IMG/VR virus record: IMGVR_UViG_3300018984_000007
Span: 1-52,941 of that record
Length of the DNA stretch: 52,941 bases
Origin: a virus
Strand: one strand, 5' to 3'
Shown here: positions 26,356 through 39,338 of the stretch, one piece after another
How positions within the stretch are numbered: position 1 is the first letter of the stretch
Layout of the letters: every line of letters begins with the position of its first letter
Program-made: the position numbers and the translations under genes
The notes under the pieces: generated by a model
What the model saw: only the letters and a program-made list of their open reading frames with translations
What the model was told of the DNA's origin: nothing
Database searches by the model: none

Positions 26356-28383
26356 GTGGCCGATCCAATCAAGCCGTCCGACCTGCTGGTGCTGATGCGA
26401 AATAACATGACGATTGGCCCCATGGCAGTGGACACCGAAACGAGTGGCCTGTTCGAGGACGACGGCGCGCGAATCTCAACCGTGTCACTCGCATTCAAAG
26501 TTCCGGACAAGATGTTTCCGATTTTGTATAACTGGGCCGGAGACGACCGCATTACGCTTCGTGTTGAAGATATAGCGCAGGGTCATACTGCAATGATCGC
26601 ATCGATCGCGTGGCCGGTGGATCAAGGTCGGGACGGCAAGCCTGAGGCGCACGGCGCAACACCGCTTTGGCCTGAGGCTGAGAATCTGCCCGACGACGAA
26701 TGGGACATCCTACTTCGCATCTTGAACCAGCACAGCTTGATCATGCACAATAGCAAGTTCGACTGCCACAAGTTCCGGGTTGGACTGCGGACACGGCCGG
26801 ACACCGGGATCGACCTGATGGACCGCGTGGCGTGGGACACGCAGAACGTGAACGACCTGTTGTGGGGTTGGGAGAAGACCGGTCTCAAGTCGACCGCTGC
26901 CCGGCTTTGGGGCAAGGAATGGGAAGACGAGAGCGCCAAGGTTTCGGCCTACCTCAAGAAGGCCAAGCTCCCGGCCGGTCGATGGGACCTCGTGCCGTGG
27001 GACGTGATCGGTCCGTACGCCGACACCGATGCGCGCTTGACGCTGATGTTATACCTGCGTCAGCAGCATGAAATCCACCACATGGGTGGCGGTTCTTGGC
27101 TTGGCGATCACCTGGACGTGATCTCAACTGCGCACCGTCGGCTTGACGTTACTCGCATGCTATACCGGATGGAGAACAAGGGCATCCCGTACGACCAGAT
27201 CAAGTCGAAGTTGACCGGGTTCGAGTGCGAAGAGCGAGCGAAGAAGATCGCACGCAAGCTGCCGTTCAGCCCGCCGACCGTCAACAAGGCCAAGCACTAC
27301 TGGTTCGGTGAAGAGGCAAAGGGTGGTCGCGGCATGATCCCCTACTCGACGACCGAAGGTGGCCAGCCACAGCTCACGGCCGAGATCGTGGCGAGGATGG
27401 TCGAAGACGGAGTCGAGCACGCCAGGACCTGGGCCGAATATGTCAAGGTCACGGACGCCGCGTCGATGTGGTATCACGGTTACGCCGACAAGGTTGGCGT
27501 GGACGGCCGACTGCGCACCAGCTTCCGGCAGAACGGAACCCGCAGCTCCCGGTTCTCGGTCGAGCGGGTCAACCTGCAGGCGATTCCGGCGAACTACAAG
27601 CTCGGCGGTTACGCCAGCCTTGAAGGACTGCCGACACCACGCGACCTGATCGCGTCGGCCGTGCCCGAGGGCTGGGCAATCTGGGAACTGGACCTAATGC
27701 AGGCTGAGCTGCGGGTCGCGGCGCTCATGGCGAAGTGTCAGCCAATGTTGGACATGATGGAGCGCGGACAGGACCTGCACGACTACACCACCCAAGCGCT
27801 GTTCAACATGGACAAGAGCCATCCCGAGTGGGACCGATACCGGCAGGTTGGCAAGCGGGCAAATTTCTCGCTATGCTTCGGCAGTGGCGCACGCACCTTC
27901 GACAACATGATTTCGAAGGAAGCGGGTATGCAGCTTGGTGAGCGTGAATGTCGACGCATCGTAACCGAGTGGAATGGACTGTACCCCGAGTTCCACGATG
28001 CGATCCAGCGGCACATGGACACGGTGGTCCGGCGTCAGCTCAAGTTCCAGAACGGTTGGGTTTCGTACAAGAATGGTGAGCGGCGCTGGTTCCAGCAATA
28101 TGAGGATGCGCACAAAGCTTTTAATCAACGTGTGCAGGGGAACCTGGCGCAGTACGGTATCGACTGGCTGCTGTTCACTGACCACTACCTGCGGCAGATG
28201 AAGGAACTGGAAGAGGCGAACGCTGGCCTCATCCTCGCGATCCACGACTCGCAGGTTCTGCTCCTGCCGGACAGCCCGCTAGGACAACGAATCGCAGAGC
28301 GGTGCGCCGGTTTCGCCAACGACCTTTGGCAACAGTGGTTCCCAGGGGTGGGTGGCGGTTCTAGCCCGAAGCGGTGGGGTTAA
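26356..28383 (+). CDS. Family A DNA polymerase with 3'-5' exonuclease, DpoZ-like
   Basis: A 675-residue protein. GTG 26356 lies five bases after AAGGAG; GTG 26350 overlaps that site. Exonuclease motifs: Asp26-Thr-Glu28 (VDTETSG), Asn132/Asp136 (NSKFD), Tyr221/Asp225 (YADTD). There is no 5'-3' nuclease domain. Polymerase motif A is ELDLMQAELR (Asp446); motif B is RQVGKRANFSLCFG, keeping Lys500 and Phe504 but with Phe508 where Pol I has Tyr; motif C is IHDSQ (Asp631) with Ser632 where Pol I has Glu. Adjacent to PurZ, it is a candidate DpoZ, the polymerase that favours 2-aminoadenine. Two dispersed motif copies lie within it. Confidence 0.85.
   Translation: MADPIKPSDLLVLMRNNMTIGPMAVDTETSGLFEDDGARISTVSLAFKVPDKMFPILYNWAGDDRITLRVEDIAQGHTAMIASIAWPVDQGRDGKPEAHGATPLWPEAENLPDDEWDILLRILNQHSLIMHNSKFDCHKFRVGLRTRPDTGIDLMDRVAWDTQNVNDLLWGWEKTGLKSTAARLWGKEWEDESAKVSAYLKKAKLPAGRWDLVPWDVIGPYADTDARLTLMLYLRQQHEIHHMGGGSWLGDHLDVISTAHRRLDVTRMLYRMENKGIPYDQIKSKLTGFECEERAKKIARKLPFSPPTVNKAKHYWFGEEAKGGRGMIPYSTTEGGQPQLTAEIVARMVEDGVEHARTWAEYVKVTDAASMWYHGYADKVGVDGRLRTSFRQNGTRSSRFSVERVNLQAIPANYKLGGYASLEGLPTPRDLIASAVPEGWAIWELDLMQAELRVAALMAKCQPMLDMMERGQDLHDYTTQALFNMDKSHPEWDRYRQVGKRANFSLCFGSGARTFDNMISKEAGMQLGERECRRIVTEWNGLYPEFHDAIQRHMDTVVRRQLKFQNGWVSYKNGERRWFQQYEDAHKAFNQRVQGNLAQYGIDWLLFTDHYLRQMKELEEANAGLILAIHDSQVLLLPDSPLGQRIAERCAGFANDLWQQWFPGVGGGSSPKRWG
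27084..27097 (+). repeat. Dispersed motif GGGTGGCGGTTCTT
   Basis: Copy in the polymerase gene between exonuclease and polymerase domains, read as MGGGSW. Confidence 0.8.
28345..28361 (+). repeat. Dispersed motif GGGGTGGGTGGCGGTTC
   Basis: Copy at the extreme C-terminus of the polymerase, read as GVGGGSS, just before the stop. Confidence 0.75.
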
Positions 28384-28472
28384 TGCCTACACTACATAAG
28401 CGCAAGCGTCGGCGCAAGAACAGTTCGGCCGCCACGGCTCGGATCAAGCGCAAGAAGAAGGGCAACCGGTAA
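28383..28472 (+). CDS. 29-residue highly basic peptide
   Basis: ATG 28383 overlaps the polymerase stop (TAATG) and ends at TAA 28472, which overlaps the next ATG. The product is MPTLHKRKRRRKNSSAATAR followed by IKRKKKGNR: more than half of the residues are Lys or Arg. It could bind DNA or RNA non-specifically. Coupling on both sides supports real translation. Confidence 0.6.
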   Translation: MPTLHKRKRRRKNSSAATARIKRKKKGNR

Positions 28473-28588
28473 TGGAGTGGTCGCATTTCGGAACCGTAAT
28501 GGCGCAGGTCGTGATCGCGTCGATGACCGGCGCGATCATCTTCATCATGCTGACCTCGGCATGGGACTCGTGGAGGAAGCCCAAGTGA
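28472..28588 (+). CDS. 38-residue membrane microprotein
   Basis: ATG 28472 follows the basic peptide's stop; TGA at 28586-28588 overlaps the next GTG. The sequence MEWSHFGTVMAQVVIASMTG continues into a hydrophobic helix (AIIFIMLTSAW) and a basic tail, so it is a single-pass membrane peptide. No family recognised. Confidence 0.6.
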   Translation: MEWSHFGTVMAQVVIASMTGAIIFIMLTSAWDSWRKPK

Positions 28589-28704
28589 ACGACCTCGCGC
28601 GTAACTTCGGGATCGGTGCTCTCATCGGGTTTACGATCTTCGCTACTGTCTTGATCCTCGCAGTCATCGGGTACAACATCTACGAGAGGAATCACCGCAG
28701 GTGA
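28585..28704 (+). CDS. 39-residue membrane microprotein
   Basis: GTG 28585 overlaps the previous stop. Residues about 8-30 (FGIGALIGFTIFATVLILAV) are one transmembrane helix, followed by a basic end (YERNHRR). Its stop overlaps the PurZ start GTG 28701. Together with the previous gene it makes a pair of membrane microproteins lodged between polymerase and PurZ. Confidence 0.6.
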   Translation: MNDLARNFGIGALIGFTIFATVLILAVIGYNIYERNHRR

Positions 28705-29765
28705 AGCTGGACGTGATCGTCGGTGGACAATACGGGTCGGAAGCTAAGGGTCACGTTACCCAGCGCGTGATTGAGCGTGCGCTAACGCTGAACCCGGACG
28801 AGCAGGTGGTCAACATTCGTGTGGCGGGACCGAACGCCGGTCACACTGGGCACAACATCTACGGCAAGGCCATGGCGTTCAGGACTCTGCCGATCGGTGC
28901 GCTGATTCCTGGTGTGGAATGCGTGGTGGCGGCCGGGTCTGAAATCCAGCCGCAGGTTTTGCTCAATGAGATCGACGCAGCCAAGTCGATCGGGTTCGAC
29001 GCCAGCTACCTGATGGTGGACCGTGAGGCGACCGTCATCGAAGACCGGCATCACGAGCGTGAGACTAACGCAGGTCTGGTCCACAAGCTGGGGTCGACCG
29101 GCAAAGGAGTCGGCGCGGCACGAGCCGACCGACTGATGCGGCAGGCAAAGCGCGTAATCGATGACGGCGTATTCATCGACGAGTTGGAAGCACGTGGCGT
29201 TCGAATCACGAACACGGCATACGACTTAGCGTTGCGTAGCGACGACGGCCGGATTGTGATCGAGGGTACGCAGGGGTTCGGGCTGGGACTTCACGCCGGG
29301 CTGTACCCGCACTGTACGTCATCCGATTGTCGGGCAATCGACTTCATGAGCATGGCTGGCGTCATGCCGTGGCAGTTCGACTACACCAGTCTTAAGGTGT
29401 GGGTCACGTGTCGGGTGTTCCCGATTCGAGTCGCTGGTAATAGCGGACCGATGACGAATGAAACGAGTTGGGACGCGTTGGGTCTGCCGACCGAGTACAC
29501 GACTGTGACGAAGAAGCCAAGGCGCGTAGGATATTGGGATCAGGCGTTAGTGCGAGCTGCGGTGTTGGCGAATGGTGGTGCGCCGACTGTGGCGCTCGCG
29601 ATCACCATGCTGGACCAGTTGTTTCCTAACACGAAGGGGATCAAGGAAACGCACAAGCTGATCACTGAAACGGACGCCATGGCATGGCTGACCAAGGTGC
29701 AGGACGAGTCGTACGCCAGGATCGAACTCGTCACTACCGGACCCAATACAGGAGTGTTCCTCTGA
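28701..29765 (+). CDS. purZ: PurZ: adenylosuccinate synthetase-like enzyme of the 2-aminoadenine pathway
   Basis: A 354-residue protein, shorter than bacterial PurA (about 430). The N-terminal loop is VGGQYGSEAKGHV: residue 13, the catalytic Asp of PurA (GDEGKG), is Ser, the hallmark of phage PurZ, which condenses dGMP with aspartate in the path to 2-aminoadenine. Other PurA signatures are kept: RVAGPNAGHTGH, LGSTGKGVGAARADR, IEGTQGFGLGLHAGLYPH and TKKPRRVGYWD. Host PurB and kinases would finish dZTP. The gene starts GTG 28701, coupled to the membrane microproteins and just behind the polymerase, the order seen in Z-genome phages. I see no obvious datZ (HD-type dATPase). Confidence 0.85.
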   Translation: MKLDVIVGGQYGSEAKGHVTQRVIERALTLNPDEQVVNIRVAGPNAGHTGHNIYGKAMAFRTLPIGALIPGVECVVAAGSEIQPQVLLNEIDAAKSIGFDASYLMVDREATVIEDRHHERETNAGLVHKLGSTGKGVGAARADRLMRQAKRVIDDGVFIDELEARGVRITNTAYDLALRSDDGRIVIEGTQGFGLGLHAGLYPHCTSSDCRAIDFMSMAGVMPWQFDYTSLKVWVTCRVFPIRVAGNSGPMTNETSWDALGLPTEYTTVTKKPRRVGYWDQALVRAAVLANGGAPTVALAITMLDQLFPNTKGIKETHKLITETDAMAWLTKVQDESYARIELVTTGPNTGVFL

Positions 29766-30463
29766 TGTGTGGATGTAAGGCTCACGGCGACAACGACGAG
29801 TTCTGCCGGTGCGGTTGCCCCGAGCACAACAATCGGGTCAAAGTGGACGGTAACAACATGGTTCACATCACCGACGCACGATACCAGGTGATGAAGCAGG
29901 CGGAGGAGACGCTGCAGAACCCGGACCTGATCACCATCAGCAGGGTCGAATACGATGCGTTCCGCGCCGCGTACCAGCGGGCCGAAGGTGTGATTGCCCC
30001 GCCGAAAGAGACACAGACGGTCTCGTTCGATGTAAAGCTGGAGCCGGGTGCAATGGAGGCGCTCGGGTTCACCGTTCGGGACGAGGGTGCCCCTGGTGCG
30101 GGTGGCGGTCGTGCCGCCGAGATCAAAGACCGGGTGCGTGAAATCACTCACTGGTGGACCTCGCACGCGGTGAACGTGATCGAGCGGACCGCACCGAAGG
30201 CCGCGCAATACGGCGCTGCTGACCTCGATTTGATGGGTCAGGCGATGGAGTCGCAGTACGCCGAGGCGATCAAATGGATGACGCCGGAAGAGCGTAAGAC
30301 GTTTGGTCGATACGCGGCGTGCGCGTTCTACGCGTTGGGCAAGGTCGCTCGTATCCAGGGTGCGCTCGAACGTGGTGAGCTGCCGCACTCGGACTCGGAG
30401 TTCGACTTGGAGGTCTATGCAGTGATGATGACCTGCATTCGTCAGACGGGTCGCTGGGTCTAG
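29765..30463 (+). CDS. Zinc-ribbon plus helical domain protein next to PurZ, possibly nucleotide hydrolase
   Basis: A 232-residue protein. ATG 29765 overlaps the PurZ stop (TGATG), so the two are co-translated. Residues 2-24 form a Cys/His cluster (MCGCKAHGDNDEFCRCGCPE). Residues about 120-230 form a helical bundle with KAAQYGAADLDLMGQAMESQ, GRYAACAFYALGKVARIQGA and a final DLEVYAVMMTCIRQTGRW. That last pattern recalls helical proteins often found near nucleotide metabolism genes in actinophages and, loosely, MazG-type all-alpha pyrophosphohydrolases. Given its position it could supply the dGTP/dATP hydrolysis that Z synthesis needs, but this is inference. Confidence 0.55.
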   Translation: MCGCKAHGDNDEFCRCGCPEHNNRVKVDGNNMVHITDARYQVMKQAEETLQNPDLITISRVEYDAFRAAYQRAEGVIAPPKETQTVSFDVKLEPGAMEALGFTVRDEGAPGAGGGRAAEIKDRVREITHWWTSHAVNVIERTAPKAAQYGAADLDLMGQAMESQYAEAIKWMTPEERKTFGRYAACAFYALGKVARIQGALERGELPHSDSEFDLEVYAVMMTCIRQTGRWV

Positions 30464-30466
30464 GAT

Positions 30467-30490
30467 TCAACCTGCCAGCCGGTAGGTTGA
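30467..30490 (+). terminator. Hairpin before the exported-protein cassette
   Basis: TCAACCTGCC pairs with GGTAGGTTGA across an AGCC loop: 10 pairs, one G-U. It lies between the PurZ operon and the first secreted-protein gene. No T-run follows. Confidence 0.6.
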
Positions 30491-30512
30491 TGTTCCAACG
30501 GAAAGGAACCGC

Positions 30513-31028
30513 GTGAAGAAGATCGCAACAGTGGTTACGGGTCTGATGCTGACCCTGGCCGGTGTGGTGGGGATCTCATCTCCCGCGTCGGCTGTCGCGC
30601 CAGGTTACTGCCCGGCTGGGCCGGGGCAGAATTGCTTCCGCAATTTTGCCAACTGTACAACGACTGACTCGTCGGCTGGCGCGATGAGCGTGGTTGTCTA
30701 CCACGTGCGGAGTTCGGGTGGCTTGTCTACCCGAGTTTACTTCCTCCGCGCAATCTCCGCGTCGGATGGTTATCACAAGGTCCTCGACTTCTCGAAGACC
30801 TCTGGTGGTGGCGGTACGACGTATTGGACCATCACTGCTCCGTTCGGGGACACACACCTGAACGGGACCACCCACCCGGAGGAAAGCTACGGGAACAGTG
30901 GTCTGGCTTGGGCATCGATCTCACAGAACCCTGTGGTCAAGACTCGGTACCAGGCAACCGCCTTCTATGGCGGGAACGTCACGCACTGCAATGTCCCGCT
31001 CGACTTCTCTACCTCCTACATCGGCTGA
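30513..31028 (+). CDS. Secreted protein, paralogue A
   Basis: A 171-residue protein from GTG 30513 after GGAAAGGAACC. The N-terminus (VKKIATVVTGLMLTLAGVVG, then ISSPASA) is a classical Sec signal peptide with A-x-A cleavage. The mature part contains CPAGPGQNCFRNFANCTTTDSS, a VVVYHVRSSGGLSTRVYFLR strand pair, SGGGGTTYW and a C-terminal Cys near HCNVPL. It is the first of three tandem, clearly related exported proteins (next at 31039 and 31587). Exported phage proteins may alter the host surface, for example to exclude other phages; no known family is recognised. Confidence 0.8.
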   Translation: MKKIATVVTGLMLTLAGVVGISSPASAVAPGYCPAGPGQNCFRNFANCTTTDSSAGAMSVVVYHVRSSGGLSTRVYFLRAISASDGYHKVLDFSKTSGGGGTTYWTITAPFGDTHLNGTTHPEESYGNSGLAWASISQNPVVKTRYQATAFYGGNVTHCNVPLDFSTSYIG

Positions 31029-31038
31029 GAGGAACCAC

Positions 31039-31575
31039 GTGAAGACCAAGATCTTCGCGCTGTTCGCGGCACTGGCGTTCGCGCTGGGTGTCACGAGCAT
31101 CGCTCCCGCCAACGCAGCTCCGCGCGCATCCGCGCCGGTTCTGTCCAATCACACCAGCACGCTGTGCCACAGCGGTTGGGTCTGCTACCGCAACTGGAAC
31201 AACTGCAACACGGCCGACTCCAGCACCGGCCAGGTCGGTGTCGAGGTCATCTCTCGCGCGTCCACCTCCGGTGCGTCGGCTCAGGTTCTGCAGGTGCGGT
31301 ACAGCTCCACGTCCAGCCAAAACTTCCGTGTCGACTGGTCGAAGTACGCGACCGGTGGAGGCGGAACGACCTACTGGTTCACCAGCTCGCCTGTCGGCGA
31401 CGCGTGGGTCGGTTTTGGCTACCCGGACAAGATCTACCAGCCGGTCGACTCGGCGTGGGGAACCTACTCGCAGAACGCCAGCGTGTGGAACTACCTGTCG
31501 CCGCGCAGTGATGAGTCGGATGTCAAGACCTCCTGCACCGTGCTCCTTACCAAGGCCAACTCCTACAGCGGATGA
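31039..31575 (+). CDS. Secreted protein, paralogue B
   Basis: A 178-residue protein. GTG 31039 follows GAGAGGAACC; the open frame upstream lies over paralogue A. The signal peptide is VKTKIFALFAALAFALGVTS followed by IAPANA-A. The mature part matches its neighbours: CHSGWVCYRNWNNCNTADSS, a SGASAQVLQVRY segment, TGGGGTTYWF, a WGTYSQN stretch and CTVLLTKAN near the end. Four Cys in conserved places suggest two disulfides. Confidence 0.8.
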   Translation: MKTKIFALFAALAFALGVTSIAPANAAPRASAPVLSNHTSTLCHSGWVCYRNWNNCNTADSSTGQVGVEVISRASTSGASAQVLQVRYSSTSSQNFRVDWSKYATGGGGTTYWFTSSPVGDAWVGFGYPDKIYQPVDSAWGTYSQNASVWNYLSPRSDESDVKTSCTVLLTKANSYSG

Positions 31576-31586
31576 AGGGCAATCAC

Positions 31587-32129
31587 ATGAAGAAGATCTT
31601 TGCGCTGTTCGCGTCGCTGGCGTTCGCAGCCAGCCTCGCGGCAGCTGCTCCTGCCAACGCAGCTCCGGCTGCGCCAGCTCCGGCCGTCATGGTGCCGGTC
31701 CTGACTGTCACCCCCGACGACTGTGGCAGCGGTAACGTCTGCTACAAGAACTGGCAGAACTGCCCCGCACAGGACGGTGCTGGCAGCGTCGCGGCCACCG
31801 TGTACCACCGCACCTCGATCTCCGGCTCGTCTGCTCAGGTGATCGGCATCCAGTGGAACAACGCCACCACGCGTTGGATGAAGCTCGGTGCCTGGTACAA
31901 GCAGTCCGGTGGTGGAGGCACGACCTACTGGTTCCGTGACGAGTTCAACGTCCCCACGTCGTACCACATGAACGGCGGGACCAACATCAGGTGGTGGGAG
32001 AACAACCTTCCCTGGGCTTCGTATTCGGTGAACCCGAAGGTGACCTCGGTGTTCGAGCCGCAGGCTGTTTACCCGCAGACGGACTGCGTCGTGAACCTGA
32101 CCAAGGCGAACCGCGTCTACAGCTGGTGA
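31587..32129 (+). CDS. Secreted protein, paralogue C
   Basis: A 180-residue protein. ATG 31587 (MKKIFALF) gives a clean signal peptide ending APANAA; ATG 31572 in the same frame is an alternative. The mature part repeats the family pattern: DDCGSGNVCYKNWQNC, SGSSAQVIGIQW, QSGGGGTTYWF, PWASYSVNPKV and CVVNLTKAN. It is more similar to paralogue B than to A. It is closed by a strong hairpin at 32141-32169. Confidence 0.8.
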   Translation: MKKIFALFASLAFAASLAAAAPANAAPAAPAPAVMVPVLTVTPDDCGSGNVCYKNWQNCPAQDGAGSVAATVYHRTSISGSSAQVIGIQWNNATTRWMKLGAWYKQSGGGGTTYWFRDEFNVPTSYHMNGGTNIRWWENNLPWASYSVNPKVTSVFEPQAVYPQTDCVVNLTKANRVYSW

Positions 32130-32140
32130 TCTAAACCATC

Positions 32141-32169
32141 GGGGACCCCGGCATCCGGCCGGGGTCCCC
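32141..32169 (+). terminator. Hairpin terminator after the exported-protein cassette
   Basis: GGGGACCCCGG pairs perfectly with CCGGGGTCCCC over a 7-base loop (11 pairs). A C-rich stretch follows, not a T-run. Confidence 0.7.
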
Positions 32170-32196
32170 ACCCCCACCTCCCCCTTTGGAGCGAAC

Positions 32197-32877
32197 ATGG
32201 TGGTCATGAACTTGGGCCGGTTGAAGCAGCACGACGAGCGGTCGCGGCAGTTCGCGTTCAGTTCGCGTGCAGCTGAGTCGATCCAGATCAAGGACAAGGG
32301 TTGGACCCACTACGGCGCGGTGTCCGATCAGGGGGTAACCAGCGCGTGCGTCGGATTCACCGGCCTGGACTGGCGCAACACGCGACCGGCGAAGCAGCCG
32401 AAGAAGGTGTACTACGAGAACACGGCGTTCGACGACTACCGTGGCGCGACGCTGCACGACGCGTGGCCCGGCGAGTGGCCGGACGTGGACAATGGAAGCA
32501 GCGGGCTGGGTCTGTGTAAATACTTCAAGTCGATCGGCGTAATCGACCGGTACGAGTGGGCGTTCGGGTTCGAGTCGTTCCTGCACATGATGATGCGGGG
32601 TCCGGTGTCGGTCGGCATCGAGTGGACCGAGGGCATGTTCTACCCCGACAAGTACGGGCAGATAAGCCCGACCGGCCGGACTGTCGGCGGACATCAGCTG
32701 CTAGCCACCAGTGTGGACGTGAACAAGCAGTATGGGGGTGGCGGTCGTGTCTGGCTGCTCAACCACTGGTCCAAGCGGTGGGGTGTCAACGGCCGAGCGT
32801 GGATGACGTTTACTGACTTCGACAACCGGCTGCGCGCCGACGGCGACGCAGTCCTGATGATTAAGGACCCGGCATGA
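32197..32877 (+). CDS. Papain-like (C1-type) cysteine protease
   Basis: A 226-residue protein from ATG 32197 after GGAGCGAAC. All papain-fold landmarks are in order: Gln45 and Cys51 in VSDQGVTSACVGF, His166 in VGGHQLLAT, and Asn189 in LLNHWSKRWGVNGRAWM, which parallels the NSWG-x-W-G-x-x-G signature. There is no signal peptide or pro-region, so it should act in the cytoplasm, or in exported form by an unusual route. It follows the three secreted paralogues and precedes nucleotide-metabolism genes. The target is unknown: host proteins, or a phage protein. A dispersed motif core (32737-32745) encodes its GGGG run before the Asn motif. Confidence 0.78.
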   Translation: MVVMNLGRLKQHDERSRQFAFSSRAAESIQIKDKGWTHYGAVSDQGVTSACVGFTGLDWRNTRPAKQPKKVYYENTAFDDYRGATLHDAWPGEWPDVDNGSSGLGLCKYFKSIGVIDRYEWAFGFESFLHMMMRGPVSVGIEWTEGMFYPDKYGQISPTGRTVGGHQLLATSVDVNKQYGGGGRVWLLNHWSKRWGVNGRAWMTFTDFDNRLRADGDAVLMIKDPA

Positions 32878-33173
32878 TGCAGCAGCACGAGGTTGAGGCG
32901 AAGAAGGAAACGCCGGTCATGGGTCCGACCCTGTCGGTGGCGCAGGCGTGGTTGAAGGCGAATGGGTGGACTCAGGTTCGCGTCGACCGATGGACGAAGC
33001 TGCAGGCTCGGACCGGTGAAGAGATGTTCGTCGAGTTGGGCTACGTCTATGGCGCGGTCTGGTTCAAGGGTAAGGTTGCTCGGATCGGTTTCATCCACAA
33101 CGCCGAGACGCGCGACCCCAACGACATCGAACCGTTGAAGCTGCTGGTTCAGGTACTGGACGAGTCGCGTTGA
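32874..33173 (+). CDS. Small protein, unknown function
   Basis: A 99-residue protein; ATG 32874 (or 32877) overlaps the protease stop, so they are co-translated. A helix (SVAQAWLKANGWTQVRVDRW) is followed by strands (MFVELGYVYGAVWFKGKVARI) and a helix ending LKLLVQVLDESR. No family recognised. The next gene starts inside its stop codon. Confidence 0.65.
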   Translation: MMQQHEVEAKKETPVMGPTLSVAQAWLKANGWTQVRVDRWTKLQARTGEEMFVELGYVYGAVWFKGKVARIGFIHNAETRDPNDIEPLKLLVQVLDESR

Positions 33174-33271
33174 ACCAGCAGGACGCGGTCTGCCCGCGTT
33201 GTGAGAAGCACGTTGTGAAGGAGACCCTGATGGATCACCTCGCCAAGCACTGGGCGGAGGACAAAGAGTGA
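33170..33271 (+). CDS. 33-residue zinc-finger microprotein
   Basis: TTG 33170 overlaps the previous stop. The product MNQQDAVCPRCEKHVVKETL ends MDHLAKHWAEDKE: Cys-x2-Cys-x11-His-x3-His, a complete C2H2 zinc finger that makes up nearly the whole peptide. Its stop overlaps the next start. It may be a DNA- or protein-binding modulator. Confidence 0.6.
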   Translation: MNQQDAVCPRCEKHVVKETLMDHLAKHWAEDKE

Positions 33272-33399
33272 ACTTGCTTCTGAACTGCCGGTCTTGCCGC
33301 ACTAACTTCGACAGCATTCAAGGTGCTGACGATCACGAGATGACCAACGACGAAACTTGTTTCCTGGCTCAGTACACGATCGTTAGGGATGCTGAATGA
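33268..33399 (+). CDS. 43-residue Cys-containing microprotein
   Basis: GTG 33268 overlaps the zinc-finger stop; the TGA at 33397-33399 overlaps the next ATG. The product (VNLLLNCRSCRTNFDSIQGA, then a C in DETCFLAQY) has a C-x2-C pair. Coupled on both sides; no family recognised. Confidence 0.55.
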   Translation: MNLLLNCRSCRTNFDSIQGADDHEMTNDETCFLAQYTIVRDAE

Positions 33400-34364
33400 C
33401 ACCCCCTCGCATGGTCTATATGGCCTACCCAATAGACCTGATCGCGGGCCGTGACGATGTCCGGCCGCTGTTCGAGACGATCGAGAACCTCAAGCCTGCG
33501 CTGATGGACGCTGGGGTCGATATAATCTTCGATCCCGGTGATGCATTCATGGTCAACGCGGCGGCCAGGGTCGGGCACGAGCTGCGGTCGATCAACCAGG
33601 CCGCGCTGGATGCGGCCGATGCGATGGTGGCGGTCCTGCCCTCCGGCCTGCCGTCCATCGGGGTCCCGATGGAAATCGACCACGCGGTCAAGCAGGGCAA
33701 GACGGTCGCGGTGATGACCGACACCAAGGCATGGATGCTGGGGTTCGGTGATTACCCCAACGTGAAGACCTTCCCGATCGAAGAGGCGGGCTGGGTCCAG
33801 ATGATCCTGTGGATGGTAGCTTCACATCTGCGGGTCGAAGAGTCGAAGCAGATCCAGGTCGAGGCACTGCCGTTCCAACGCGCGTACAAGGCGGAATGCG
33901 GCAAGTACGGTGTGCACGACGCACACGATTACGGCGAGCACATGGCCGATCGTTGCGACGGCGTGCCGGATTGCACCCCGCGACGCGTTCACCATAACGA
34001 CGCGGGCTGGGACCTGATCGTGGCTGAAACGACATTGATCCGGCCTGGCCAGCAGGTTGATATCCCAATGGGGGTGGCGGTTGCACTGCCCGAGTGGTCA
34101 TTCGGTCGAATCACCGGCCGGTCGTCGACACTGCGGAAGCTCAACGTCCTCGTCAATGAGGGCATTATTGATGCCGGATACCGGGGACCACTTTACGCGC
34201 TGTGTCGCAACATGGGCACCGAGAACGTGCGAATCGACGCCGGATCCAGGGTCGCACAGCTCATCATCCACGAAAACCACGCGCCGGAAGTTGAGCCGGT
34301 CGCGGTACTCGATCTGCCGGAATCAACACGAGGGGACCGTGGTTTTGGTAGTACGGGAACGTGA
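33396..34364 (+). CDS. Fusion of deoxyribosyltransferase-like domain and dUTPase
   Basis: A 322-residue protein. Residues 1-145 resemble nucleoside 2-deoxyribosyltransferases (VYMAYPIDL start, DAADAMVAVL strand, probable catalytic Glu93 in GVPMEIDHA). Residues about 165-195 are Cys/His-rich and may bind zinc. Residues 196-322 hold all five dUTPase motifs: NDAGWDL (202-206), GRSS (241-244), GIIDAGYRG (256-264), GSRVAQL (283-289) and RGDRGFGST (312-320). The dUTPase part should convert dUTP to dUMP; the first domain may exchange bases on deoxynucleosides, useful if the phage changes its purine pool. Two dispersed motif cores (33626, 34073) are read here in the V-A-V frame. Confidence 0.8.
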   Translation: MTPPRMVYMAYPIDLIAGRDDVRPLFETIENLKPALMDAGVDIIFDPGDAFMVNAAARVGHELRSINQAALDAADAMVAVLPSGLPSIGVPMEIDHAVKQGKTVAVMTDTKAWMLGFGDYPNVKTFPIEEAGWVQMILWMVASHLRVEESKQIQVEALPFQRAYKAECGKYGVHDAHDYGEHMADRCDGVPDCTPRRVHHNDAGWDLIVAETTLIRPGQQVDIPMGVAVALPEWSFGRITGRSSTLRKLNVLVNEGIIDAGYRGPLYALCRNMGTENVRIDAGSRVAQLIIHENHAPEVEPVAVLDLPESTRGDRGFGSTGT

Positions 34365-34470
34365 AGAGCTTGACACGGTAGACCTCAGCCCGCTAGGGTG
34401 GCTGGCTGTGATCACGGGTGCGCTCACACCCCTGATCGTGCTCGGAGTCGTCATCCTGATGTACTCCTGA
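34339..34470 (+). CDS. 43-residue membrane microprotein
   Basis: GTG 34339 follows GAGGGG with 4-base spacing and overlaps the dUTPase end. After a charged start (VVREREELDTVDL) come about 23 hydrophobic residues (PLGWLAVITGALTPLIVLGV, then VILMYS). Last gene of the rightward early block. Confidence 0.55.
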   Translation: MVLVVREREELDTVDLSPLGWLAVITGALTPLIVLGVVILMYS

Positions 34471-34527
34471 GCACGCCGTTCCGGTTGATAAGGTGCGGGG
34501 AATGCTCCTGGTCCCGGAACACAGAAA

Positions 34528-34560
34528 CGCCCGGCAGTCCCGAGGGGGGACTGCCGGGCG
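34528..34560. terminator. Bidirectional terminator between convergent blocks
   Basis: CGCCCGGCAGTCCC pairs perfectly with GGGACTGCCGGGCG around GAGGG. It lies between the last rightward early gene (ends 34470) and the last leftward gene (ends 34569), so it should stop transcription from both sides. Confidence 0.8.
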
Positions 34561-34568
34561 GATCTGTA

Positions 34569-34952
34569 TCAGGAGACGGGCTGGAGAGCCGTCCCGTGAG
34601 CTGGCGTGGGCGGGGTGGCAGGTACGGCGGTAGTGACAGGGCCGTCGTCACGGCGGGGCCGGTAGCGGCTGCCTCCGGTGACCAGGCTGCCCAGTTTGGG
34701 GCGGGCGGACTCGGTCTGCTCGAACACCAGGACGGCGACCTTGGACTGCTCTTCCGCGATCACGTCCAGCAGGTCCACGATCGAGACGTTCTGGTCCTCC
34801 TGGTTGGCGCGGACATGGACCTTGTCGTCGATTCCCTCGATTGCGCCGTGCTCCGCGACCCGAGCCCGATCCATCATATTCATCAAGATCGGGTAGTGCA
34901 GGCTCCAGATTGCCTCGCGCTGCTGGTCGATCGGTGTCAGGGTCTCACTCAT
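34569..34952 (-). CDS. Leftward small protein, unknown function
   Basis: A 127-residue protein starting ATG 34952. The first 85 residues are helical and acidic (MSETLTPIDQQREAIWSLHY; SIVDLLDVIAEEQSKVAVLV); the last 40 are Pro/Thr/Arg-rich and disordered. It overlaps the upstream 47-residue gene by 8 bases. Last gene of the leftward operon, before the bidirectional terminator. No family recognised. Confidence 0.65.
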   Translation of the reverse strand: MSETLTPIDQQREAIWSLHYPILMNMMDRARVAEHGAIEGIDDKVHVRANQEDQNVSIVDLLDVIAEEQSKVAVLVFEQTESARPKLGSLVTGGSRYRPRRDDGPVTTAVPATPPTPAHGTALQPVS

Positions 34953-35088
34953 CGGTGGTGTCCTCGTCCTTCTTGACGTAGAGCTTTGGCGGGGTCACAT
35001 TCTCTTCGTTCGTCTCGGCCAGCATGAGTTGCCTGGCCCAACGACGCTCTTCCTCGATTCGGTCGAGGTGGATCTTGAACGGGTCCAC
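34945..35088 (-). CDS. 47-residue protein, unknown function
   Basis: GTG 35088 follows CCAGGAGGCGCAAA on the minus strand. The product VDPFKIHLDRIEEERRWARQ continues through a helix and ends in an acidic tail (VKKDEDTTDE). It looks like a short amphipathic helix with a charged end. Coupled to the next gene by overlap. Confidence 0.6.
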   Translation of the reverse strand: MDPFKIHLDRIEEERRWARQLMLAETNEENVTPPKLYVKKDEDTTDE

Positions 35089-35113
35089 TTTGCGCCTCCT
35101 GGGGGCGGGTTAG

Positions 35114-35308
35114 TTACAGCGGGCTGATTTCGATCATGACGAGCTTGCCGTTCTTGGTCTTGCCCTCCCACATGAACATGAAGTCCATCTCGTCGAAGTG
35201 GTCGGAAGCCAGAGCCAAGATGCCAAACTCTTCGTTCATCATGGCCAGGACGTGCATTGCCATGCCAGGGTCGACCAAACCCCAGTCCAGATAGACCATG
35301 ACCCGCAT
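35114..35308 (-). CDS. 64-residue protein, unknown function
   Basis: ATG 35308 lies four bases after the lipoprotein stop. The product (MRVMVYLDWGLVDPGMAMHV ...) is Met-rich with alternating strands and helices and ends KLVMIEISPL. No family recognised. Confidence 0.6.
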   Translation of the reverse strand: MRVMVYLDWGLVDPGMAMHVLAMMNEEFGILALASDHFDEMDFMFMWEGKTKNGKLVMIEISPL

Positions 35309-35312
35309 GGCG

Positions 35313-35801
35313 TCAGTTCTCGATCACGGACGTGACGGACGCGGTGACCTTGGTACTGGCCTTCGGCGTGGTCCCCGACCCGCTCATGAACGGCTTCTCG
35401 AAAGTGAGCCCATTCGAGACGAGCGTGTCTGAGTACGGGTCCGTCAGCCCGTTCATGATGTAGGTGATCTCCCAGCTTTCGCCGTCCTCGGGCTTGAGGT
35501 TCTCCGGCCCCACGTAGTTCAGGGTTGGCTCCCAATTGACGTTGCACCCGTACCCGCTGAAGCAGTGCTTCTTCGTGACCCGGATCGAGACGGTCCAGTC
35601 CTTGGTGCCGAGTGGGCGCTCGATCGCCTTGGGCGTTTCTGCCTTGGGGGCGGTGAGCTTCTTGGGCGGGGTGGCGGTCCCTGAGGTTGCCACTGGAGCG
35701 GTGGCGCGGCCAACGTTCTTGGCCTCGGGTGCGGCGCAACCGACCAGAGCCAAGGCGGCAACTGCGGCGGGACCCCAATAGCGGAAGTGTGTGTAGCTCA
35801 T
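35313..35801 (-). CDS. Predicted lipoprotein
   Basis: A 162-residue protein starting ATG 35801. The N-terminus has a short polar part, a hydrophobic core (GPAAVAALALVGC) and a lipobox (LVGC) with Cys22 as lipidation site. A disordered Thr/Pro/Lys linker (about 25-60) leads to a folded domain with Cys in HCFSGYGCNVNW and a strand-rich SWEITYIMNGLTDPYSDTL segment. It resembles secreted lipoproteins of Streptomyces in shape and may come from a host. Lipoproteins in phages often block superinfection. A dispersed motif copy (35670-35678) lies antisense in its linker. Confidence 0.7.
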   Translation of the reverse strand: MSYTHFRYWGPAAVAALALVGCAAPEAKNVGRATAPVATSGTATPPKKLTAPKAETPKAIERPLGTKDWTVSIRVTKKHCFSGYGCNVNWEPTLNYVGPENLKPEDGESWEITYIMNGLTDPYSDTLVSNGLTFEKPFMSGSGTTPKASTKVTASVTSVIEN

Positions 35802-35831
35802 TGCGTCGGTCTCTCTTCTCGTGAGGTGAAA

Positions 35832-36686
35832 TCAGGCGGGCTGGGTGGTGTACGGCTTGAACGTGCTGTTGTTCGTGACCGGGATCTTGTATTCCAGGTC
35901 CTTGAGGTTGTCGGCCGCGTTGCTGGCTTCCGAGCCAGGCTTCACCTCGCTGCGGGTGACCACGTTGTCGACCTGCTTGGCGTGGTAGGTCCAGCGGCCG
36001 ATCTTCACCGTGCCGTAGACCGGCGTGGGCGCAGGGGTCGCAGGCTCGTCGGTCTTGAGCTTGCTGGCCTTCTCCACCAGGCGACCGGCGTGGGCGTAAG
36101 CCTTGTCGCGCAGCTTCTGCGAGGGCAACTCGTTCAGAGCGTCACGGACCTCGTCCTCGGTGCCGACCCAGCCGCCGTTCGCGATCACCGTCTGTGCAAT
36201 CTCCCTGGCCACCTGGCCAGCGTGCCTCGCGTCGTGACCCGGAGCGTACTCCCGTGAGGACAGAGCCTCGCAGCCGCACAAGCACGGCTTAGTGGCAGCA
36301 GCCGGATTGCGGGGGGCACGTGGTGACTTGGGGGCAGAGGTTCCCTTGGTGGGGGTGGCGGTCCTGGGTGCGGGCATCCGCGCGTCGAGCCAGGTGGTGA
36401 ACTTGGCGGTGACGGCTGCCTCGTCCTCCATCTTGACCAGGTCCTCGTGCAGACCCCAAACCGTGTCGCCGTCCGGGGAGGTGACCTCTTCAGCCCACCC
36501 GTGGTTGACCAGGATGCCGACCAGCTCGCGAGCGTACCGGCTGTTGATGTTCACCTTGCTGGCGACATCGGTGATGTCCACGAAGTGCTGGTCGTGGATC
36601 AAGGCGAAGGTCTTGGCCAGCTCGTCGCGAACGTGGCTCTCGATCTCGGCCTTCTTGGGAGCAGGGGTGGCGTTCTGGAGGGACAT
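35832..36686 (-). CDS. Winged-helix-like protein with a GHDAR domain (paralogue 2)
   Basis: A 284-residue protein from ATG 36686 after CCCAGGAGTCCC. Residues about 12-80 look like a winged helix (ITDVASKVNINSRYARELVG, then a wing with SPDGDTVWGL). A Pro/Ala-rich linker leads to PCLCGCEALSSREYAPGHDA (about 132-151) followed by RHAGQVAREIAQ, then ALNELPSQKLRDKAYAHAGR. A C-terminal strand-rich domain follows (KIGRWTYHAKQVDNVVT). The combination suggests a DNA-binding regulator. A dispersed motif copy (36351-36366) lies antisense in the linker. First gene of its operon; a TTGTGT/TACGAT promoter lies just upstream. Confidence 0.65.
   Translation of the reverse strand: MSLQNATPAPKKAEIESHVRDELAKTFALIHDQHFVDITDVASKVNINSRYARELVGILVNHGWAEEVTSPDGDTVWGLHEDLVKMEDEAAVTAKFTTWLDARMPAPRTATPTKGTSAPKSPRAPRNPAAATKPCLCGCEALSSREYAPGHDARHAGQVAREIAQTVIANGGWVGTEDEVRDALNELPSQKLRDKAYAHAGRLVEKASKLKTDEPATPAPTPVYGTVKIGRWTYHAKQVDNVVTRSEVKPGSEASNAADNLKDLEYKIPVTNNSTFKPYTTQPA
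36351..36366 (+). repeat. Dispersed motif GGGGGTGGCGGTCCTG in a leftward gene
   Basis: The word keeps its + orientation although the gene here runs leftward (it encodes TATPT in the antisense direction). Evidence that orientation follows the genome, not the gene. Confidence 0.8.
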
Positions 36687-36727
36687 TTGGGACTCCTGGG
36701 GTGAGAAGTGGCGGGGTGACTAGAACC

Positions 36728-36756
36728 ATCGTACCACATCCCGTCCCAGGACACAA
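36728..36756 (-). promoter_or_regulatory. Leftward promoter TTGTGT-N17-TACGAT
   Basis: Read on the minus strand: -35 at 36756-36751, -10 at 36733-36728, spacing 17. Start near 36721, 35 bases before ATG 36686. Confidence 0.75.
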
Positions 36757-36799
36757 GGGGTGCTTTGGTGTGCGCTGGGACGGAAAGAAGTGCGGTGGG

Positions 36800-37012
36800 T
36801 CAGGGAGAAGGGAAGAGGTGCGGGTAACCCCAAGGTTCCTGGGTTACGACCAAGACCGCACCGTTTCCGCCAATACGACGGAAATCCGGTGAACGCTTCA
36901 TGTCGTACGGACCGATCGCGTCTTCGGGGATCCGCCACTCTTCGGTCGTGTAGTACTTACCGGTGTCCTTGAACAGGATCACCTCAGCGCGGGGACCGGG
37001 GGGAAGTTGCAT
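36800..37012 (-). CDS. 70-residue protein, unknown function
   Basis: ATG 37012 lies one base after the upstream stop, so the two are coupled; the longer frame above 37012 is overlap. The product MQLPPGPRAEVILFKDTGKY is followed by a strand-rich, Trp/Tyr-containing sequence (TTEEWRIPEDAIGPYDMK; GGNGAVLVVTQEPWGYPH). No family recognised. Confidence 0.6.
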   Translation of the reverse strand: MQLPPGPRAEVILFKDTGKYYTTEEWRIPEDAIGPYDMKRSPDFRRIGGNGAVLVVTQEPWGYPHLFPSP

Positions 37013-37013
37013 G

Positions 37014-37415
37014 TCAGCTTGCGTAACCGACGGCGCGCAGAGGGAACTCGATCGTGACCAGGACCACGTCGGACGGGGAGAACTCCGCGTAGAACTCGCC
37101 TCCACCGACCTCCTGAGCCTCCATGAACAGGGACTCCGGGAAGTTGACCGAGAACCACCCCGGGATCGGACGACCGCCCCGATCCTTGAGGGGGCGGACC
37201 TCCGTGGCCGGGTCCACGATCACCTCGTGGTCGAGCTGGTTGATCGCACGGGCGACCAGGACCTCGTGGCCAACCGGCCAGGTCCGGCCGACGTGGCCGG
37301 AGTGCCGGGTGTTCGGGTTGGCGGCGTCACGGGCTTCGACCCAGACGACACGGACCGGGACGGCCGGGCAGAAGGAACGGGGAGCTGTGATTCGGGGAAG
37401 CGGCTTGGTTTCCAT
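37014..37415 (-). CDS. Leftward protein, unknown function
   Basis: A 133-residue protein from ATG 37415 after AGGAGAACC. It is beta-rich (VPVRVVWVEARDAANPNTRH; GHEVLVARAINQLDHEVIVD; a final ADVVLVTIEF-like strand with PLRAVGYAS). Soluble and probably monomeric or oligomeric beta structure. A good dispersed motif copy lies in the gap just upstream (37432-37448). Confidence 0.65.
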   Translation of the reverse strand: METKPLPRITAPRSFCPAVPVRVVWVEARDAANPNTRHSGHVGRTWPVGHEVLVARAINQLDHEVIVDPATEVRPLKDRGGRPIPGWFSVNFPESLFMEAQEVGGGEFYAEFSPSDVVLVTIEFPLRAVGYAS

Positions 37416-37431
37416 GGCGGGTTCTCCTTAT

Positions 37432-37448
37432 GGGGGTGGCGGTTCTTC
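37432..37448 (+). repeat. Intergenic dispersed motif GGGGGTGGCGGTTCTTC
   Basis: Near-ideal copy between two leftward genes, outside any coding sequence, keeping + orientation. It rules out a purely protein-level explanation. Confidence 0.85.
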
Positions 37449-37462
37449 GGTTTGGGGGGAGA

Positions 37463-37711
37463 CTAGAGTCGATTCCAAGCGGGGAGGATCAGAGAGACCA
37501 CGTCGCCGTCGGGGAAATCAACTGTGATAGTGAATTCGTCGTCGGGGAACCGGATGATGTGCTGGCCGATCAGGACCGGGAGCTGGGAGTTGTAGTTCAG
37601 GAGCCGCTCGAACGCGGTGCGGAATGCGTCCTTGTCGACGAGGGCTCGGATCAGCTCACCATTGTAGATGATTTTGGCCTGCGGTTTGGTGGGGGCGGTG
37701 ACGTCGGTCAT
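37463..37711 (-). CDS. 82-residue protein, unknown function
   Basis: ATG 37711. The product has an N-terminal disordered stretch, a helix (ELIRALVDKDAFRTAFERLL) and strands (FTITVDFPDGDVVSLILP). It belongs to the same size class as the next upstream gene (82 residues) but I see no clear homology. Unknown function. Confidence 0.65.
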   Translation of the reverse strand: MTDVTAPTKPQAKIIYNGELIRALVDKDAFRTAFERLLNYNSQLPVLIGQHIIRFPDDEFTITVDFPDGDVVSLILPAWNRL

Positions 37712-37726
37712 GGTGGGCGCTCGCTT

Positions 37727-37975
37727 TCAGTAGTCGAGGATGACGGAGATCGGGCCGACCCGGCTCTCCTGGGGGACGATCAGGGAGAACATCCAGTTCT
37801 CGCCCCAGACGGTGATCTCCAGCTCTTGCTCGCCGTAAGCCGAGGTGATTCGCATGTCCTCGATCGAGAGGGGTTCCGTGAACTTTCTGCCGTCAACCGC
37901 GACCAGCTTTTTGCCGACGAACTCGGAGAAGTCGGAATCTGCGATTAGGGCGCGGACCGTGTGGCGGGTTTCCAT
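37727..37975 (-). CDS. 82-residue protein, unknown function
   Basis: ATG 37975 after AAAGGAGCCTGCA. It contains a helix (ADSDFSEFVGKKLVAVDG) and strands (QELEITVWGENWMFSLIVPQ). First gene after the leftward promoter at 38042-38070. Confidence 0.65.
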   Translation of the reverse strand: METRHTVRALIADSDFSEFVGKKLVAVDGRKFTEPLSIEDMRITSAYGEQELEITVWGENWMFSLIVPQESRVGPISVILDY

Positions 37976-38041
37976 TGCAGGCTCCTTTGGCGGGGTCGAG
38001 CGGGGGGCGGGGGCGGGGGGCGTCTCTTTCTTTCTACCCCT

Positions 38042-38070
38042 ATCCTATCAGGTAGGGGGAGGGGATGCAA
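38042..38070 (-). promoter_or_regulatory. Leftward promoter TTGCAT-N17-TAGGAT
   Basis: Read on the minus strand: -35 at 38070-38065, -10 at 38047-38042, spacing 17. It should drive genes 37975 to 36800 with a leader of about 60 bases. Confidence 0.7.
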
Positions 38071-38092
38071 GGGGTGCGGGATGTGATGCGGA

Positions 38093-38296
38093 TCACACCA
38101 GGAGCAAGCGACTTGCTAAACGGGAAACCGCAGCGGGGAGGGGTTCTGGGTTAACTCCGCAGACGCCACCCGGACAGTCGGAGCAGGGGAGGGTCGGGAA
38201 GCCCGCGTCCCAAGCGCTAGGGTCGTGGTGGGGGCGCGGATGACCGCAGTCGGGGCACGGGAGGGGAGGCAGCTTGCGGGGTTCGGCGTGTCTCAC
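38093..38296 (-). CDS. Small zinc-binding protein
   Basis: GTG 38296 follows AAGGAG with ideal spacing; the longer upstream frame is not used. The 67-residue product has CPDCGHPRPHHD and CSDCPGGVCG, giving two C-x2-C pairs plus His, a likely zinc ribbon, followed by an amphipathic helix (LPAAVSRLASRLLL). Unknown role. Confidence 0.6.
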   Translation of the reverse strand: MRHAEPRKLPPLPCPDCGHPRPHHDPSAWDAGFPTLPCSDCPGGVCGVNPEPLPAAVSRLASRLLLV

Positions 38297-38467
38297 GGTG
38301 GGCGCTCCTTCGGCGGGGGGGATCACGGTAAATCTGCAAAGGCTTGACCTTGGAAAGCTACTACCGGGGCCGCCAAAAGGGAAAAGACCCGGTTCGGAAA
38401 CGTTGACGGCTGGTTTCGAGATTCGCGTGGGGAGGGTCACCGTGAATCTTCGGTGGGGGGCCGATCT
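38297..38467. other. Short non-coding gap with a paired 14-base repeat
   Basis: Between two leftward genes. It holds two related sequences, ATCACGGTAAATCT (38322-38335) and GTCACCGTGAATCT (38436-38449), which could be operator half-sites. No gene or promoter is convincing here. Confidence 0.4.
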
Positions 38468-38497
38468 CACCGGGGACCCTTCTCAGGGTCCCCGGTG
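38468..38497 (-). terminator. Perfect 13-bp hairpin after the leftward GHDAR gene
   Basis: CACCGGGGACCCT pairs perfectly with AGGGTCCCCGGTG around a TCTC loop, just beyond the stop of the 38505-38861 gene. Likely the end of that single-gene transcript. Confidence 0.8.
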
Positions 38498-38504
38498 GGG
38501 AGCG

Positions 38505-38861
38505 TTAGACCTGGGCGTCTGCGAGAACCTTGGCGGCTGCGGCCTTGCCAGCCTCGCGGGCTGCGACCTTCGCGGCCTTCTCGGTTGCCTTGCGCTGCGC
38601 CGTCTCGTTGACGCCGAGCGCCTTCTCGCGGAGCTTGTCGGTCGGGAGCGTGGCCAGCAGAGCCTTGATCTCGTCCGAGCTGGTGGTTGCGGCGAGTGCG
38701 CGTCCGACCTGACCGGCGTGGCGTGCATCGTGTCCGCTGACGTAAAACGCGTCCTGCCGGACGGTTGCCTGTCCGCAGTTGCACTTGCAAGGGGTGGGGG
38801 TGGCGCTCGCGGTGGGCGCCTCGGTGGTGGCGACCTTCTTGGCGGCGGTCTTCGTGGTCAT
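38505..38861 (-). CDS. GHDAR-domain protein (paralogue 3)
   Basis: A 118-residue protein. ATG 38861 (MTTKTAAKKVATTEAPTASA) lies behind CCAAGGAGCACAAA; the open frame to 39038 crosses the promoter and is discarded. Residues about 22-50 hold CKCNCGQATVRQDAFYVSGH then DARHAGQVGRAL, matching paralogue 2 closely; LLATLPTDKLREKALG matches its LNELPSQKLRDKAYA. The C-terminus is an Ala/Lys/Glu helix. It is the minimal member of the family, with its own promoter and terminator beside the control region, so it may be a regulator of the late genes. Confidence 0.65.
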   Translation of the reverse strand: MTTKTAAKKVATTEAPTASATPTPCKCNCGQATVRQDAFYVSGHDARHAGQVGRALAATTSSDEIKALLATLPTDKLREKALGVNETAQRKATEKAAKVAAREAGKAAAAKVLADAQV

Positions 38862-38917
38862 TTTGTGCTCCTTGGCGGGTTTCGGGGGGAGGCTTCCCTC
38901 CCCTTCCTTGTAATACA

Positions 38918-38947
38918 AGTATACCATCTCCGGGGGGTATGGCGCAA
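38918..38947 (-). promoter_or_regulatory. Leftward promoter TTGCGC-N18-TATACT
   Basis: Read on the minus strand: -35 at 38947-38942, -10 at 38923-38918, spacing 18, start near 38911. Divergent from the 38995 promoter. Confidence 0.7.
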
Positions 38948-38970
38948 GTCCCGAGGGGTCGATGCCATGT

Positions 38971-38985
38971 GATGTGTGCCACATC
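38971..38985. promoter_or_regulatory. Palindrome GATGTG-TGC-CACATC
   Basis: Perfect 6-bp arms between the two divergent promoters. A looser form (GATGTG ... CCACAT) occurs near 39165-39184. Possible operator. Confidence 0.5.
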
Positions 38986-38994
38986 GTAGCATAC

Positions 38995-39023: not shown

Positions 39024-39025
39024 CA

Positions 39026-39042: not shown

Positions 39043-39062
39043 GGCTGCAAGTTGCGCTCGCA

Positions 39063-39079: not shown

Positions 39080-39082
39080 AAT

Positions 39083-39323: not shown

Positions 39324-39338
39324 GTGTTACGATGGGTC

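What the first reader, a model, noticed from the sequence alone, without database searches (positions are those of the whole stretch)
30513..32129. Three tandem exported paralogues of unknown family
Genes at 30513, 31039 and 31587 all have Sec signal peptides, then conserved Cys (a C-x4/5-C..NWxNC-like region and a late C-x-V), an S-x-SAQV strand and an SGGGGTTYW(F) stretch. Phages rarely encode three exported paralogues. They may coat or modify the host surface, block other phages, or aid spread in mycelium. The gene array looks like recent duplications with rapid divergence.
Basis: partly seen in the sequence, partly recalled or inferred. Interest (0 to 1): 0.62.

Follow-up and report, generated by a model that had tools for sequence, protein, structure and literature searches.

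The report
Three secreted sister proteins of phage
A virus of soil-type bacteria carries three neighbouring, fast-diverging genes for small secreted disulfide-bonded proteins that match nothing in the databases searched; they probably act on the outside of the host cell, perhaps to keep rival viruses out, but that has not been tested.

Summary
Three tandem genes (30513-31028, 31039-31575, 31587-32129) encode homologous proteins (pairwise E 1e-19 to 2e-20), each with a Sec/signal-peptidase-I signal, no lipobox, no visible wall or membrane anchor, and exactly four aligned cysteines. The phage is a near-complete, circularly permuted ~52.8 kb actinophage with PurZ (Z-DNA synthesis) genes and no detectable integrase. 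The trio, a papain-like protease gene and a 99-aa ORF lie between conserved PurZ-operon genes: PurZ-to-dUTPase is 3631 bp here, but 289-1299 bp in the 23 of 27 relatives where it could be measured. The trio is the only tandem of signal-peptide ORFs in 2.36 Mb of related loci. No relative was found in phages, plasmids, IMG/VR, bacterial genomes, Pfam, PHROGs, NCBIfam or PDB. "Recent duplication" is only partly right: gene 1 is saturated, and genes 2/3 are moderately old but changing fast (dN/dS 0.92 in the mature part, against 0.07-0.34 for PurZ orthologue pairs at comparable pS). The low-confidence model is an all-beta sandwich. Best reading: secreted surface-acting accessory proteins, most likely for superinfection exclusion or surface masking (0.4). 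Function is inferred, not shown.

The parts
30513..31028 (+). exported paralogue 1 (171 aa; signal peptide ~1-27, mature ~15 kDa, 4 Cys)
31039..31575 (+). exported paralogue 2 (178 aa; signal peptide ~1-26, mature ~16 kDa, 4 Cys)
31587..32129 (+). exported paralogue 3 (180 aa; signal peptide ~1-25, mature ~17 kDa, 4 Cys)
30467..30490 (+). 10-bp hairpin (one G-U pair) just upstream of paralogue 1; possible terminator or 5' UTR structure
   Evidence: (z -2.4 for 30455-30512); stems of this size also arise by chance in shuffles
32141..32169 (+). 12-bp GC-rich hairpin, 11 G-C pairs, just after paralogue 3; probable transcription end of the trio (no T run, so not a classical intrinsic terminator)
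   Evidence: (z -3.6 for 32120-32196)
32197..32877 (+). papain-like (C1) cysteine protease; Gln45, Cys51, His166 and Asn189 are invariant in 9 aligned phage relatives; same cargo block as the trio, link in function unknown
32874..33173 (+). 99-aa ORF overlapping the protease stop; no match
28701..29765 (+). PurZ (2-aminoadenylosuccinate synthetase), left conserved neighbour
29684..30463 (+). conserved gene between PurZ and dUTPase in relatives (tblastn matches in 11 loci; true start probably later)
33396..34364 (+). NDT-like/dUTPase fusion (322 aa), right conserved neighbour
   Evidence: compare the DmtZ-DutZ fusion of phage Wayne in PMC12884076 (passages read)

Best explanation
The trio is an accessory cargo block in a virulent-looking actinophage that probably replaces adenine by 2-aminoadenine. 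The phage makes three small disulfide-stabilised, mostly beta, aromatic-rich and charge-poor proteins, presumably during replication. They leave the living host through Sec, are freed by signal peptidase I (no lipobox), and stay in the wall or diffuse. Most likely they bind the outside of the host cell or an incoming phage's tail tip and so block further adsorption or DNA entry (superinfection exclusion or receptor masking). Three diverged copies would cover different surface types or rivals. Shown: genes, homology, signal-peptide features, conserved cysteines, insertion site, fast amino-acid change, absence of detectable relatives. Inferred: export, disulfides, fold, timing, and every step of function.
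For: Signal peptides and uniqueness as a tandem. Four aligned Cys. Cargo position between conserved genes. Mature parts of genes 2/3 have dN/dS 0.92 (bootstrap 0.65-1.35), against 0.42 (0.16-1.0) in the signal peptide and 0.07-0.34 in the 50 of 55 PurZ orthologue pairs with pS 0.30-0.51, same estimator. Composition is like that of cell-wall-contacting proteins: aromatic 12.5-12.9% and charged 10.4-12.5%, against medians of 8.1% and 23.6% in 29 other genes of the window. All-beta model, pLDDT 67.6, pTM 0.68. Not in the structural or lysis blocks. Precedent: phage-encoded exported exclusion proteins are known in Gram-positive hosts: Ltp (PMC3952083, abstract) and the candidate gp41 of C. acnes phages (PMC11480721, passages).
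Against: No sequence or fold match to any known exclusion protein. Known Ltp-type proteins are membrane-anchored lipoproteins, while a freely secreted protein could leave the infected cell. A virulent phage gains less from exclusion than a prophage, and no integrase was found. The models are of low confidence: the second gave pLDDT 56. A fast rate fits toxins as well as exclusion proteins.
Confidence: 0.4

Rival explanations
1. Secreted toxins or bacteriocin-like proteins: the infected cell releases them to harm competing bacteria or grazers, with copies diverging to meet new targets.
For: Signal peptide more conserved than the mature part, and a high dN/dS; small, Cys-bonded, secreted, three diverged copies.
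Against: No toxin family match; no immunity-like gene recognised next door; little charge, unlike many membrane-active peptides (recalled).
Confidence: 0.2
2. Lectin-like or cell-wall-binding proteins that change the host surface or matrix during infection (adhesion, hyphal spread, access for the endolysin), rather than excluding phages.
For: Aromatic-rich, charge-poor beta proteins; the phage's own endolysin and large tail-region proteins have similar composition.
Against: No carbohydrate-binding module match in Pfam; not placed in the lysis cassette.
Confidence: 0.17
3. Partners or inhibitors of the neighbouring papain-like protease, for example chagasin-like (I42) inhibitors that guard the envelope or medium.
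For: Adjacent gene; Ig-like beta model; a Gly-rich loop GGGGTT recalls the GxGG loop of chagasin (recalled, not a test).
Against: The NPTTG and RPW loops (recalled as I42 hallmarks) are absent from the sequences; no Pfam match; the protease has no signal peptide; a strong hairpin separates them; relatives of the protease were found in 110 loci, none of which holds a relative of the trio.
Confidence: 0.06
4. Host-derived genes carried by chance, or lysis accessories, with no role outside the phage's own release.
For: The related protease sits in lysis cassettes of Gordonia phages.
Against: Three copies with conserved Cys and motifs imply selection; no host relative found; the trio lies in the nucleotide-metabolism operon, far from the endolysin at 12120.
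Confidence: 0.12

Closest known systems
Ltp-type superinfection exclusion lipoproteins (phage TP-J34; PMC3952083, abstract read)
   Same: small phage-encoded proteins exported by a Gram-positive host; accessory genes
   Different: Ltp is a lipid-anchored protein of a temperate phage; the trio has no lipobox, no sequence match, neutral to slightly basic mature parts, and sits in a phage without a detectable integrase
gp41 of Cutibacterium acnes phages (PMC11480721, passages read)
   Same: exported product of an actinobacterial phage, predominantly beta C-terminal part, proposed in exclusion
   Different: predicted transmembrane signal and membrane location; single copy; tested only by expression and prediction; no direct sequence comparison was made here
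Exported hydrolase of Streptomyces phage JackieB (L013:40787-41266, annotated 'hydrolase'; signal peptide; NlpC/P60-like is recalled)
   Same: Sec-type signal in a related actinophage
   Different: enzyme-like, single copy, unrelated sequence
Lipoprotein at window 35313-35801 (-)
   Same: exported by the same phage; shares C-x-S-G-x-x-C-x-x-N-W with paralogue 2
   Different: lipobox; hhalign probability 4%: no demonstrated homology

Membership tests
A secreted paralogous family of its own (the three genes) | significant pairwise similarity over most of the mature domain | tested here: met
   E 2e-20, 1e-19, 2e-19; A2 profile scores all three at E below 1e-78 (built from them)
A secreted paralogous family of its own (the three genes) | Sec signal with signal peptidase I site | tested here: met
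   rule-based scans; no SignalP and no experiment
Ltp-type exclusion lipoproteins | lipobox with lipid-modified Cys | tested here: not met
   first Cys at 33, 43 and 46, after AxA sites at 25-27
Ltp-type exclusion lipoproteins | acidic surface thought to bind tape-measure protein (PMC11480721 passages) | tested here: inconclusive
   mature pI 7.9-8.4; surface not computed
Ltp-type exclusion lipoproteins | blocks DNA entry of other phages | not testable with these tools
   needs an assay
Chagasin (I42) cysteine-protease inhibitors | NPTTG and RPW loops plus GxGG (recalled) | tested here: not met
   reading of the three sequences: no NPTTG, no RPW; no Pfam I42 match up to E 1
Any solved beta-sandwich family | clear fold match | tested here: inconclusive
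   best Foldseek E 0.14 (PDB) and 0.11 (BFVD); VIA Z at most 7.8, which the tool calls common; model pLDDT 67.6
PADLOC defence proteins | model match | tested here: not met
   0 families for all three at E up to 1

The most novel reading that the evidence does not exclude
A new family of freely secreted phage proteins that act at a distance: infected cells release several diverging blockers that coat their own and neighbouring cells (or hyphae), reserving them for the phage or neutralising rival virions. This would be extracellular superinfection exclusion by a virulent Z-DNA phage, with copies under arms-race selection.
Probability: 0.18. Interest if true: 0.75.

Novelty: new variant of a known kind. 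Interest (0 to 1): 0.46.

Why it matters
Phage-encoded exported proteins are known mostly as single lipoproteins or membrane proteins of prophages. A tandem set of soluble, fast-diverging secreted paralogues in a virulent-looking phage, with no relative in the collections searched, would be a clean case for asking whether lytic phages act on cells they have not yet infected. The proteins are small and predicted to be soluble, so they can be tested one by one.

Tried and rejected
Relatives: tblastn of each protein in 50,697 phage records, none at E up to 1, 1 and 10. Plasmids: 17 of 72,556 records, all one 63-residue Agrobacterium match at E 0.1, taken as chance. IMG/VR pattern scans: 51, 9, 34 and 6 stretches matched a pattern, 0 confirmed. 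Genome contigs: 106 stretches, 0 confirmed. Whole-record HMM in 50 phage or virus records: 0 of 50 at E up to 1. Bacterial genomes: 6 of 8 at E up to 1 with the full-length profile, best 0.009, a Kitasatospora secreted protein matched over profile positions 5-50, which are mainly signal peptide; 2 of 394 (E 0.0025, 0.0047), both read as out-of-frame ORFs; 1 of 394 (E 0.0036, 54 positions, frame with a stop, not followed up); 0 of 396; 0 of 35. Draws overlap, and in the large draws (68, 79, 106) only ten candidates per genome were scored. Positive control: the same tool with one paralogue finds the other two at E 1e-29 and 2e-18. No Pfam, PHROGs or NCBIfam match; the few weak rows (E 0.06 or worse) were taken as chance, several being signal-peptide-only.

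Idea that the trio mimics the phage's own tail adhesin: no such window ORF in the profile search; next best window ORF E above 4. Idea that the lipoprotein at 35313 is a fourth paralogue: only a short motif, hhalign probability 4%. Sigma-70-like promoter scan: 0 found, 1.6 expected, uninformative for actinophages. Fold matches with Z 5 to 7.8 (adaptin ears, FN3, the MspA rim, alpha-hemolysin) were set aside as generic. Second model (paralogue 3) pLDDT 56, not searched. Literature: nine searches showed no paper on secreted tandem paralogues in an actinophage; I saw listings, one abstract and passages of two papers only, so this is not proof of absence. dN/dS caveats: NG86, codon bias not modelled; random pairing of codons gave pS 0.605, so synonymous sites of the 2/3 pair are about 80% of the way to saturation, and the true ratio may be nearer 0.75 (hand calculation). 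Of 55 PurZ pairs, 50 fell in the printed pS band; the other five are not quoted.

Full report
What is there. The window is a virus record of 52,941 bases. Its last 130 bases repeat its first 130 (127 of 130 identical, 126 in an unbroken run), so it is a circularly permuted, near-complete genome. It encodes tape measure, endolysin, terminase, portal, capsid, helicase, two polymerases, PurZ and a dUTPase. The terminase is nearest to Streptomyces griseus phages (up to 49.6%); primase-polymerase and PurZ are nearest to Arthrobacter phages (43.8% and 47.5%). No DNA-level match exists in the phage collection for 28000-40000. No tyrosine integrase or serine resolvase was found (the controls rang in 14 and 10 of 14), so it looks virulent.

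The trio. Genes at 30513, 31039 and 31587 encode proteins of 171, 178 and 180 aa that are 35-38% identical in pairs. Each starts with a basic n-region and a hydrophobic core and ends its signal with ASA or ANA (read from the sequence). None has a Cys at the cleavage site, and none ends in an LPXTG-like or hydrophobic tail. Each has exactly four cysteines, aligned in all three together with CxN[WF]xNC, [ST]GGGGTTYW and a late CxV. A strict rule-based signal scan over 2,357,706 bases of loci found 45 ORFs and only one tandem run, the trio. Loci overlap and include duplicate phages, so the rate is a rough guide.

Setting. In relatives the order polA - PurZ - small gene - dUTPase is conserved. Of 27 loci with both PurZ and dUTPase, the distance could be measured in 23: 289 to 1299 bp, median 839 (one phage, HunterDalle, is counted twice as L016 and L040). 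In the window it is 3631 bp, and the excess is the trio, a papain-like protease gene and a 99-aa ORF. A 10-bp hairpin lies before the trio and a 12-bp GC-rich one right after it. In the whole window 14 stems of 9 or more pairs were found, against 5 to 10 in six first-order Markov shuffles, so the longer one is the more convincing. The protease belongs to a family in 54 phage records whose profile matches papain and cathepsin B chains. It has the Gln-Cys-His-Asn set in all nine aligned members, and in several Gordonia phages it lies in the lysis cassette. A functional link to the trio is not shown.

Evolution. Between genes 2 and 3 the signal peptide is 71% identical and the mature part 39%. 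The Nei-Gojobori dN/dS is 0.92 (0.65-1.35) in the mature part and 0.42 (0.16-1.0) in the signal. The same estimator on PurZ orthologues of Arthrobacter phages gave 0.07-0.34 for the 50 of 55 pairs with pS 0.30-0.51. With random codon pairing, pS saturates at 0.605, so the real ratio for genes 2/3 may be nearer 0.75. Gene 1 against the others is saturated. The duplications are therefore not recent, but the mature domains change unusually fast.

Fold. AlphaFold2 on the three-row alignment gave an all-beta model of paralogue 2 (pLDDT 67.6, pTM 0.68) and a weaker one of paralogue 3 (56.1) with a similar run of strands in the first half. Foldseek found nothing below E 0.1 in PDB or BFVD. VIA gave Z up to 7.8 to unrelated beta sandwiches. 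This supports 'beta sandwich' and no family.

Relatives. None found in any collection searched; weak rows are told under Tried and rejected. The tools do find one paralogue with another, so relatives of about 35% identity in the searched whole genomes would probably have shown. The pattern-based scans are less sensitive.

Function. Predicted export from a living host, a position away from structural and lysis genes, surface-like composition and fast change of the mature part point to action outside the cell on a variable target. Phage-encoded exported proteins of Gram-positive hosts with a known or proposed role include superinfection exclusion proteins: Ltp (PMC3952083, abstract) and gp41 of C. 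acnes phages (PMC11480721, passages). I therefore rank exclusion or surface masking first (0.4), secreted toxin second (0.2), surface-binding lectin third (0.17). The trio does not belong to the Ltp family: it has no lipobox.

Verdict. A real, well-described and unusual feature; an orphan family with a plausible but untested outside-the-cell role.

Noticed in passing
35313-35801 (-): Predicted lipoprotein (LVGC lipobox) of 162 aa, a fourth exported protein of this phage; weak PHROG matches (E 0.0006) and one tblastn match in Saccharomonospora phage PIS 136 at a place with no annotated gene.
   Followed up: partly
28701-34364: PurZ, a conserved small gene and an NDT-like/dUTPase fusion resemble the Z-DNA synthesis set of Arthrobacter phage Wayne (PMC12884076, passages); the window gene 29684-30463 may be the nucleotide hydrolase of the set, but has no Pfam match above its cut-off.
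   Followed up: partly
32197-32877: Papain-like protease without a signal peptide, present in 54 phage records of mainly actinobacterial hosts and in 20 genome loci, mostly Streptomyces and other actinobacteria; role unknown.
   Followed up: partly
window ends 1-130 and 52812-52941: Terminal overlap of about 126 bp: the record is circularly permuted and close to complete.
   Followed up: yes
16976-17013, 34528-34560 and 38466-38499: Three further strong hairpins (17, 14 and 15 pairs), the second followed by a T-rich tail on the - strand.
   Followed up: no
39027-39038 and 39067-39078: Two copies of the perfect palindrome TTGAACGTTCAA 40 bp apart, possibly an operator.
   Followed up: no
L013:40787-41266: Streptomyces phage JackieB encodes a hydrolase with a Sec-type signal peptide outside its lysis cassette.
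   Followed up: no
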